The notes below the pieces were generated by a model that had not been told where the DNA came from, made no database searches, and saw only the letters and a list, made by a program, of their open reading frames with translations. The translations under genes and the position numbers were made by a program. A stretch of 43,136 nucleotides of DNA, from NCBI GenBank assembly GCA_017416765.1, contig JAFQBE010000023.1:1-43136 (forward strand), given 5' to 3'. This DNA comes from Clostridia bacterium (GTDB lineage Bacteria; Bacillota; Clostridia; Oscillospirales; Acutalibacteraceae). The number at the start of each line of letters is the position of its first letter. Within the stretch, counting starts at the first letter, position 1. Positions 3,690 through 43,136 of this stretch are shown in pieces.

Positions 3690-3884
3690 TTACAGTTTGT
3701 CAAACTGAATTGAAAATTGAAAATGGAAAGTTGAAAATTAAGGGTCGCTTCGCTCCGAATTTATAAAATGTTGTTTTAAAGCGATAATTATAATGGGTGA
3801 GGGCAAAGCCCTCCCACAATTTTCCATTTTTAATTTTCCACTTTACATTATTACAGTTTTGCGAGTTTCTCGCAAAACTGTAAT
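3690..3884. repeat. Heptamer-armed palindromic element, copy 1
   Basis: Noncoding element between blaI and thioredoxin. Order: outer hairpin ATTACAGTTT-GTC-AAACTGAAT (3690-3710); left arm of five 7-bp units at 3708-3742 (AATTGAA, AATTGAA, then variants); core 3743-3817 with a GTCGCTTCGCTCC stretch and the hairpin GGGTGAGGGC-AAA-GCCCTCCCAC; right arm of 7-bp units at 3818-3852 (AATTTTC, CATTTTT and variants) roughly complementary to the left; outer hairpin 3850-3884 with perfect 16-bp arms. The core is nearly identical to the copy at the window's end, but the arms are unrelated to those of either other copy. Confidence 0.85.
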
Positions 3885-36258: not shown

Positions 36259-36446
36259 ATTACAGTTTAGCGTTGCAAAACTGTAATTTAAGTAATGAGT
36301 AAGAAGTAACAGTGAAGAAGTAATGGCGGGACACCCGCACCCGAATATATAATGGGTGTGGGCTTTAGCCCACCCACACTTCTTCGTTATTCACTATTAC
36401 CTATTACTTGAATTATAATTTTTGGCTATGCCGATAAATTATAATT
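36259..36446. repeat. Heptamer-armed palindromic element, copy 2
   Basis: Noncoding element between the metallophosphoesterase and the HEXXH protein. Order: outer hairpin ATTACAGTTT ... AAAACTGTAAT (36259-36287); left arm of five 7-bp units at 36290-36324 (AAGTAAT, GAGTAAG and variants); core with hairpin GCGGG-ACA-CCCGC and hairpin GGGTGTGGGC-TTTA-GCCCACCCAC; right arm of 7-bp units at 36378-36409 (ACTTCTT, CGTTATT, CACTATT and variants) complementary in register to the left; outer hairpin 36411-36446 of ATTATAATTT type. Core half and arms differ from copies 1 and 3, but the layout is the same. Confidence 0.82.
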
Positions 36447-42271: not shown

Positions 42272-42321
42272 AAAACTTTTAAAAGATGTAATTTTTAAGT
42301 TAAAACTTAAATAAGTTACAC

Positions 42322-42449
42322 ATTCTTCTCCCATCCGGACTTTACCGTCGGTATCGGAATTTCACCGATTCGGGGAAAGCGCGGGCGCGCTGTCCTTCGC
42401 AGACTTTAACTGCCGGTGAGGAATTTCACCTCGCCCCAAAGAATATTCA
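42322..42449 (-). ncRNA. FMN riboswitch (RFN element)
   Basis: Aptamer on the minus strand in the leader of ribU. Seen: the closing stem (ATTCTT / AAGAAT), GGGGCGAGGTGAAATTCCTC and the CACCGGCAG arm, the CGCGCCCGCGC variable hairpin, CGGTGAAATTCCG, and the closing GTAAAGTCCGGATGGGAGA. All are hallmark RFN segments. High FMN should favour the terminator at 42236-42271 and shut off riboflavin uptake. Confidence 0.96.
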
Positions 42450-42973: not shown

Positions 42974-42985
42974 TGGATAGATAAA

Positions 42986-43136
42986 TTACAGTTTGTCTGA
43001 TTGAATGCAGAACGCAGAGTGCAGAGTGCAGAACGAAGGGTCGCTTCGCTCCGATTTTATAAAATGTTGATTTAAAGCGATTATTATAATGGGTGAGGGC
43101 GTAGCCCTCCCACCGTTCTGCGTTCTGCGTTCTGAA
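42986..43136. repeat. Heptamer-armed palindromic element, copy 3 (runs off the window)
   Basis: Order: degenerate outer hairpin ATTACAGTTTGTCTGATTGAAT (about 42986-43006); left arm of four 7-bp units at 43007-43034 (GCAGAAC, GCAGAGT, GCAGAGT, GCAGAAC); core with GTCGCTTCGCTCCG, TATAAAATGTTG and hairpin GGGTGAGGGC-GTA-GCCCTCCCAC; right arm of CGTTCTG units from 43114, cut by the window end. The core is almost identical to copy 1, yet the arms share no sequence with it. Confidence 0.85.

What the first reader, a model, noticed from the sequence alone, without database searches (positions are those of the whole stretch)
3690..3884. Repeat family whose hairpin arms are 7-bp tandem units that differ completely between copies
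Copies at about 3690-3884 and 42986-43136 share a nearly identical core, including a GTCGCTTCGCTCCG stretch and a GGGTGAGGGC / GCCCTCCCAC hairpin. Their arms are unrelated: AATTGAA-type units in one, GCAGAAC/GCAGAGT-type units in the other. In each copy the right arm is built of the reverse complement of its own left arm's unit with the same 7-bp period. Ordinary mobile repeats keep their ends and let the middle vary; here the reverse holds. This calls for a process that writes or homogenises a 7-bp unit symmetrically on both sides, for example hairpin-templated copying or slippage with gene-conversion-like repair. 7-bp-unit hairpin repeats are known from some cyanobacteria as I recall; I am not aware of a description in this group.
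Basis: seen in the sequence. Interest (0 to 1): 0.82.

Follow-up and report, generated by a model that had tools for sequence, protein, structure and literature searches.

The report
Heptamer-armed intervening-sequence-like palindromes
The repeats look like short, gene-less relatives of a widespread selfish element (one also known as an insert in bacterial ribosomal RNA genes), whose hairpin stem is built of 7-base units that differ from place to place yet match within each copy, which makes an old puzzle about such repeats testable.

Summary
In detail: two copies share a ~94% identical core, fold into long hairpins, and their 7-bp arms differ. A third copy with another heptamer lies at 36260-36444. 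But the outermost ends are conserved too. In the genus, full-length versions carry a four-helix-bundle gene (PF05635, 23S rRNA intervening-sequence protein, IVP) between heptamer arms, with one or other of the same GC boxes; I read the window copies as IVP-less derivatives. Of 68 IVP loci, 23 have 7-bp arrays on both sides and 39 on at least one; at lags 5, 6, 8, 9 and 10 none do. In 28 loci own-arm complementarity is 0.84 against 0.52 between loci (0 of 2000 permutations). Four of 34 scanned IVP loci lie inside 23S rRNA, two inside RNase P RNA. Among close species, 9 of 14 shared loci differ in arm type (by eye). A per-copy symmetric writer is not shown: arms of one copy match no better than arms of sister copies, and chimeras exist. 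How arms change is open.

The parts
3690..3701 (+). outer end TTACAGTTTGTC of copy 1
3708..3741 (+). left arm, type A heptamers (AATTGAA)
3742..3757 (+). box 2, GGGTCGCTTCGCTCCG; its inverse complement lies downstream of the IVP gene in 3 of 58 IVP loci; in L185 (another genus) the box lies upstream of the gene
3758..3794 (+). A+T-rich spacer between the boxes, where I infer that the IVP gene has been lost
   Evidence: inference
3795..3817 (+). box 1 hairpin GGGTGAGGGC...GCCCTCCCAC; a like box lies upstream of the IVP gene in one element (L353)
3818..3849 (+). right arm, inverted type A heptamers
3850..3884 (+). perfect end palindrome ATTACAGTTTTGCGAG...CTCGCAAAACTGTAAT
   Evidence: I6
36290..36324 (+). 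left arm of the third copy, heptamer AAGTAAT (type E)
36325..36376 (+). core of the third copy: GGCGGGACACCCGCACCCG ... GGGTGTGGGCTTTAGCCCACCCA
36377..36409 (+). right arm of the third copy (inverted AAGTAAT-type units)
36410..36445 (+). right end palindrome of the third copy
42984..42997 (+). outer end AATTACAGTTTGTC of copy 2
43003..43037 (+). left arm, type B heptamers (GCAGAAC/GCAGAGT)
43038..43053 (+). box 2 of copy 2
43054..43090 (+). A+T-rich spacer of copy 2
43091..43113 (+). box 1 hairpin of copy 2
43114..43136 (+). right arm of copy 2, inverted type B heptamers, cut off by the contig end

Best explanation
The repeats are non-autonomous, MITE-like derivatives of a widespread class of palindromic selfish elements whose full-length form encodes the four-helix-bundle intervening-sequence protein (IVP, PF05635). 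The class includes classical 23S rRNA intervening sequences (IVS). Plan: heptamer arm, GC box, (IVP gene), GC box, inverted heptamer arm, with extra end palindromes outside the arms in the short copies. Shown: own-copy complementarity of the arms around IVP genes, different heptamers at different loci, GC boxes in some of them, insertions inside 23S rRNA and RNase P RNA, and arm-type differences at the same locus between close species. Inferred: (1) short copies arose by loss of the IVP gene; (2) in RNA the long stem folds and is cut (RNase III, as published for rRNA IVSs), so insertion is tolerated and pairing, not sequence, is selected; (3) copies spread by transposition with help in trans; (4) arms change number by 7-base slippage, exchange as modules by recombination between copies, and over longer times stay complementary by selection on the stem, perhaps helped by copying across the hairpin.
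For: IVP genes with heptamer arms on both sides: own genome C15 (type B, the arm type of window copy 2; ORF 117 aa) and C11 (type C, L327), G006 C52 (type F) and G240 (type A, another genus). Pfam 23S_rRNA_IVP at 8e-28 (C15), 3e-26 (C52), 8e-25 (G240). Box 2 downstream of the IVP in 3 of 58 genus and phylum loci, box 1 upstream in 1 of 58; 0 of 2320 letter-shuffled flanks hold box 2. Over 68 IVP loci: both arms 23, either arm 39; lags 5, 6, 8, 9, 10: 0 of 68; lag 11: 2. In 28 non-redundant loci, arm complementarity 0.838 own against 0.521 between; own right arm best for 25 of 28; 0 of 2000 permutations. Heptamer-armed IVP elements inside 23S rRNA and in a stem of RNase P RNA. A published IVS has tandem heptamers (PMC4990558, passages). 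Arm turnover at 9 of 14 shared loci.
Against: 29 of 68 IVP loci have no 7-bp array on either side at this threshold, and in 3 of 28 two-armed loci the own right arm is not the best partner. The boxes are rare around IVP genes (4 of 58 loci), never both around one gene, and in L185 box 2 lies upstream of the gene, against the other three. The outer end TTACAGTTTRTC of the short copies is not seen around the IVP elements read. No transposase is known for them. A target duplication is clear at one site (8 bp); 2 of 91 end pairs against 0.15 expected. There are no RNA data. Arms do not co-vary within copies of a subfamily.
Confidence: 0.65

Rival explanations
1. Plain MITE subfamilies with module swapping: arm types are old alternatives, inherited with the element and exchanged by recombination through shared cores and ends. 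No heptamer-specific process exists beyond slippage, and the likeness to IVP elements is a loan of modules rather than descent.
For: Many loci share the same arm type; 6 of 49 copies are chimeric (A/B, F/B x2, A/C, F/C, H/F); no within-copy covariation; at one locus two species carry inverted cores and different arms between matching flanks (locus 18).
Against: Does not explain why IVP loci in many families and phyla each have their own heptamer, matched on both sides, or why types A, F and B differ at one heptamer position in 4 of 4 units of each arm.
Confidence: 0.45
2. Hairpin-templated writing: one arm is copied onto the other by template switching in the cruciform or single strand, in steps of seven, so that each copy keeps itself symmetric.
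For: Own-arm complementarity with between-locus divergence in 28 loci; in-register type difference at a shared locus, ATTTTGC ACTTTGC ATTTTGC against ATTATTC ACTATTC ATTATTC (locus 1).
Against: No clear excess complementarity of own arms within types A, F, B (the nearest is A with shifts allowed, 150 of 2000); persistent chimeras; selection for a stem could give the same long-term pattern.
Confidence: 0.25
3. Recognition-site coevolution: each heptamer is a binding site of a protein (the IVP or a transposase), so a change of specificity drives the same base change into all units of both arms.
For: Between types A, F and B, at least one heptamer position differs in 4 of 4 units in each of 6 comparisons (random-placement P 0.001-0.024); in the right arm one unit-specific letter is shared by all three types.
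Against: That null is generous, since any two periodic arrays differ in this way; in the left arm no unit-specific letter is shared by A and F or by F and B, one by A and B. No binding data.
Confidence: 0.15

Closest known systems
23S rRNA intervening sequences with the S23/IVP open reading frame (e.g. the published Coxiella IVS, PMC4990558; abstract and passages read)
   Same: IVP family protein, inverted-repeat stem around it, tandem heptamers next to the ORF with unit number varying between strains; three heptamer-armed IVP elements were found here inside 23S rRNA of other Bacillota
   Different: Window copies 1 and 3 lie between protein genes and hold no IVP gene; copies are dispersed with several arm types; the passages seen do not present heptamer arms as a general feature
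P6b stem-loop of the Nostoc tRNA-Leu(UAA) intron (PMC4476775; abstract and passages read)
   Same: Stem built of one of two degenerate heptamers (TDNGATT or NNTGAGT), with replacement of one class by the other while the rest of the intron is conserved
   Different: One fixed locus inside an intron; no IVP, boxes or dispersed copies in the passages seen
Tandem heptamers of Nostoc, Xanthomonas and Beggiatoaceae (PMC4692102, PMC4679880; passages read)
   Same: Intergenic 7-bp arrays, sometimes inverted, shared by distant phyla
   Different: Described as simple sequence repeats, G-quadruplex formers or regulatory repeats, not as arms of an IVP element
MITEs
   Same: Short, gene-less, terminal inverted repeats, many copies, likely related to a gene-bearing element
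   Different: The gene-bearing relatives found encode the IVP and no transposase; target duplication clear at one site only

Membership tests
IVS / IVP elements | IVP (S23, PF05635) reading frame inside the inverted repeat | tested here: not met
   No ORF of 80 aa or more inside copies 1 and 3; copy 2 has only 151 bases in the window. Met in relatives
IVS / IVP elements | Inverted-repeat stem enclosing the element | tested here: met
   IVP loci
IVS / IVP elements | Insertion inside rRNA genes | tested here: not met
   Copies 1 and 3 lie between protein ORFs and one search finds no rRNA in the window; 4 of 34 scanned IVP loci are in 23S rRNA
IVS / IVP elements | Excision by RNase III without religation | not testable with these tools
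   Published for rRNA IVSs (PMC4990558, passages)
IVS / IVP elements | Shared non-coding parts with IVP-bearing elements | tested here: inconclusive
   Arm types A, B, C, F occur with IVP; a box in 4 of 58 loci, never both around one gene; in L185 box 2 is on the other side; outer ends not seen there
MITE | Terminal inverted repeats, short, no gene, many copies | tested here: met
MITE | Target-site duplication | tested here: inconclusive
   8 bp at one empty/full site; 2 of 91 end pairs against 0.15 in shuffles
MITE | Transposase-bearing parent | not tested
   No transposase search was made; no end pair 450-4000 bp apart had a duplication
REP / BIME with RAYT transposase | Tagged palindromes and Y1 transposase | not tested
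   Considered only
Cyanobacterial heptamer repeats (STRR, name recalled and used as a search term) | Degenerate tandem heptamers | tested here: met
   An arm type of the wider family (AATTCGT, from G154) matches 44 plasmid records, 21 of them Nostoc

The most novel reading that the evidence does not exclude
All heptamer hairpins of bacteria (cyanobacterial heptamer repeats, the Nostoc tRNA-intron P6b stems, rRNA intervening sequences, RNase P inserts and these intergenic palindromes) are one class of selfish element, and a dedicated process, possibly involving the IVP, writes or re-writes a 7-nt unit in concert through both arms, so that the stem is conserved while its sequence is free.
Probability: 0.25. 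Interest if true: 0.93.

Novelty: new variant of a known kind. Interest (0 to 1): 0.8.

Why it matters
It ties together repeats that have been described apart, gives the orphan IVP protein a genomic home (inside heptamer-armed palindromes, in rRNA, in RNase P RNA and between genes), and supplies close species in which the origin of heptamer arms can be followed locus by locus. A hairpin that keeps its pairing but changes its whole sequence in 7-base units is unusual for mobile DNA.

Tried and rejected
Per-copy symmetric writing was tested by permuting arms among copies of one type and found no support. Rfam on the window gave only an FMN riboswitch. Plasmids and phages at E 0.01: 3 records and 1 record, each matching 16-17% of the query, the arm only; viral contigs: 0. 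The B arm had no plasmid match, the E arm two weak ones. Comparison of the window's own loci with relatives failed, since their genes are ~70-76% identical there; it was moved to the G002/G005/G006 trio. Small empty sites by gapped BLAST gave nothing useful. The GCARA heptamer pattern was found in 5 of 299 phylum genomes, the own one included; the other four have different units (two read), and the control pattern rang in two genomes. The A/F/B phase test is told as suggestive only: its null ignores periodicity. Arm types of orthologous loci were assigned by eye; some sides are stubs below the array threshold; one pair (no element) was dropped. In one search, 8 of 49 copies were flagged with unlike arms; L028 and L099 are script misreadings on inspection, leaving 6. 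Of IVP loci, 30 of 39 genus matches, 28 of 29 fetched phylum loci (L382, a partial match, dropped) and 10 of 26 plasmid records were examined. One search was superseded because it cut off right arms that overlap the stop codon. Paper searches; no listing showed heptamer arms as a general feature of IVP genes or such repeats in Clostridia; the library is open-access only. Recalled, from no call: heptamers in cyanobacterial RNase P RNA, the relation of the IVP to the DGR protein Avd, the helix name P12.

Full report
Check of the observation. Copy 1 (3690-3884) has AATTGAA-type arms, copy 2 (42986-43136) GCAGAAC/GCAGAGT-type arms; the cores are 94% identical over 78 bases. TRF reports period 7 in all four arms and the arms pair. 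As single-stranded DNA, copy 1 folds with z -9.5 and a complete B-type sister of copy 2 with z -7.9; none of 200 shuffles matches either. Copy 2 is cut off by the contig end. A third copy with another heptamer, AAGTAAT, lies at 36260-36444 (z -8.4).

Corrections. The core finds 44 matches in the own genome at E up to 10, 15 of them over at least 78 of 81 bases. The outer end AATTACAGTTTRTC is common to the arm types and occurs at 213 places within two mismatches, against 54 for the reversed pattern. So ends and core are kept and the arm between them varies. Own-genome arm types seen: A AATTGAA, B AACGCAG, C AATTAGG, D AGATAAT (inside longer cores), E AAGTAAT. In close relatives the same core carries mostly type F, TGCAAAR, or B. 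In other genera of the family the box GGGTCGCTTCGCTCCG follows AATTCGT (G154), AGTGTGG (G100), TGCAAAA (G195, G268) or A-like (G240) heptamers; 8 of 300 family genomes, three of them of the own genus, hold the box pattern.

Symmetry within copies. Of 49 copies with both arms typed by script, 41 have like arms and 8 were flagged as unlike; two of these are script errors on inspection, leaving 6 chimeras: L030 A/B, L086 and L170 F/B, L075 A/C, L189 F/C, L096 H/F. Within types, own arms are no more complementary than arms of different copies: A 0.737 against 0.735 (11 copies), F 0.726 against 0.755 (15), B 0.686 against 0.707 (5); with shifts by sevens allowed A 0.784 against 0.775 (150 of 2000 permutations as high), F and B below their means. 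On this time scale no process is seen that keeps each copy symmetric by itself.

Turnover between species. G002, G005 and G006 are about 87-94% identical where they align, and largely syntenic. I find 14 loci with heptamer arrays or clear stubs of arrays in at least two of them: 9 differ in arm type and 5 agree (types assigned by eye). Three further loci show presence against absence or a stub. At one of these the empty site reads TTAAAGAAG and the filled one is flanked by TTAAAGAA on both sides, an 8-bp duplication; over all near end pairs 2 of 91 show such a repeat, with 0.15 expected. At the locus near G005 C11 178 kb both junctions and the right end palindrome align while arms and core differ, which favours change in place over a second insertion. 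At the locus near G005 C26 125 kb the right arms stay in register, ATTTTGC ACTTTGC ATTTTGC against ATTATTC ACTATTC ATTATTC.

The full-length element. At one shared locus G006 holds type F arms with box 1 and an open reading frame between them. The protein, its counterpart between type B arms in the own genome (C15; 117 aa) and a third between type A arms in another genus match Pfam PF05635, 23S rRNA-intervening sequence protein, at 3e-26, 8e-28 and 8e-25; NCBIfam calls the C15 protein four helix bundle protein, and the nearest solved chains are 2rld and, weakly (E 0.0014), 2gsc. In the genus and phylum set, box 2 lies downstream of the IVP gene in L335, L343 and L337 and box 1 upstream in L353, 4 of 58 loci, the sides predicted by the short core; 0 of 2320 shuffled flanks hold box 2. 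Against this, in L185, which was not in that set, box 2 lies upstream of the gene; no IVP gene with both boxes was seen; and the outer ends of the short copies are not seen around the three IVP elements read. The origin of the short copies by loss of the gene is therefore an inference.

Generality. PF05635 is found in 10 of 11 genomes of the genus and 34 of 199 of the phylum; tblastn with the C15 protein finds 26 plasmid records. Of 68 loci examined (30 genus, 28 phylum, 10 plasmid), 23 have 7-bp arrays on both sides and 39 on at least one; at lags 5, 6, 8, 9 and 10 none of 68 does, at lag 11 two do. In 28 non-redundant loci the left arm matches the inverse of its own right arm at 0.838, that of other loci at 0.521 and its own right arm unreversed at 0.538; its own is the best partner in 25 of 28, and 0 of 2000 permutations reach the observed sum. 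The six plasmid loci with both arms are Nostoc (3), Treponema, Aulosira and Euhalothece. Twenty-nine of 68 loci show no array, so the link is frequent, not universal.

Where they sit. Rfam places 4 of 34 scanned IVP loci inside 23S rRNA (L365, L373, L377 with both arms; L370 with arms below threshold) and 2, of one genus, inside RNase P RNA (L372, L374). In L372 the insert lies at the tip of a stem that I take to be P12 (name recalled) and its heptamer arms prolong that stem. L365, L373 and L377 hold the insert between the same 23S flanks, ACCGAAGC and GGTAGGGGAGCG, each with different heptamers; the IVP reads in the sense direction of the RNA in all six, with one stop codon inside it in L373.

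Related heptamers elsewhere. The type A arm finds 31 plasmid records at E up to 1, 16 of them Parabacteroides. Of five Bacteroidota loci read, three carry an inverted partner nearby by eye (L254, L255, L286); some hits may be chance in A+T-rich DNA. The arm AATTCGT finds 44 records, 21 of them Nostoc.

Literature. Nostoc tRNA-Leu introns carry a P6b stem of one of two degenerate heptamers, with repeated replacement of one by the other (PMC4476775, abstract and passages). The Coxiella 23S IVS has tandem heptamers before its S23 ORF, varying in number between strains, and is cut by RNase III (PMC4990558, abstract and passages). Other heptamer reports were read in passages (PMC4692102, PMC4679880). 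My ten paper searches listed no statement that IVP elements in general have heptamer arms; the library is open-access only.

How it probably works. Selection or processing needs a long stem, not a sequence. A stem of 7-base units can gain or lose units by slippage and can pair in shifted register; copies exchange arms through common cores and ends; over long times arms of each lineage end up with their own heptamer. Whether a copying step across the hairpin writes the arms is open: the long-term data fit it, the short-term data give it no support. Types A, F and B differ at one heptamer position in 4 of 4 units on both arms, which any theory has to explain, though the test there is weak.

Noticed in passing
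window 42319-42447, - strand: FMN riboswitch (RF00050, 109 bits).
   Followed up: no
L388 489-845; L391 474-842; L384 501-839: IVP genes sit between cas2 and cas1 (Nostoc plasmid), beside cas1 (Pseudanabaena plasmid) and between hsdS and hsdR (Monoglobus).
   Followed up: no
L372 and L374, 1229-2003: An IVP gene with heptamer arms inside the RNase P RNA gene, lengthening one stem of the ribozyme.
   Followed up: partly
L017, L018, L024, L030, L075: Longer cores hold a nested inverted module TGTCATTCTGAGCG...CAGGATGACA and a further heptamer pair (AGATAAT type).
   Followed up: partly
G000 C5, C40, C47, C1 ends (L005-L008): Contigs end inside B-type copies, so the assembly seems broken at these repeats and their number may be underestimated.
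   Followed up: no
Near-full core copies are 83-93% identical between G000 and G002/G005/G006, whose genes at two window loci are only ~70-76% identical, hinting at horizontal exchange or strong constraint.
   Followed up: no
L324, L344, L343, L353: By eye, the left heptamer array begins at or just after the stop codon of the gene upstream, as if seeded from the target.
   Followed up: no
arm types A-K phased to the core; published heptamers: Many heptamers contain an A-R-Y triplet plus four type-specific bases; seen by eye, not tested.
   Followed up: no
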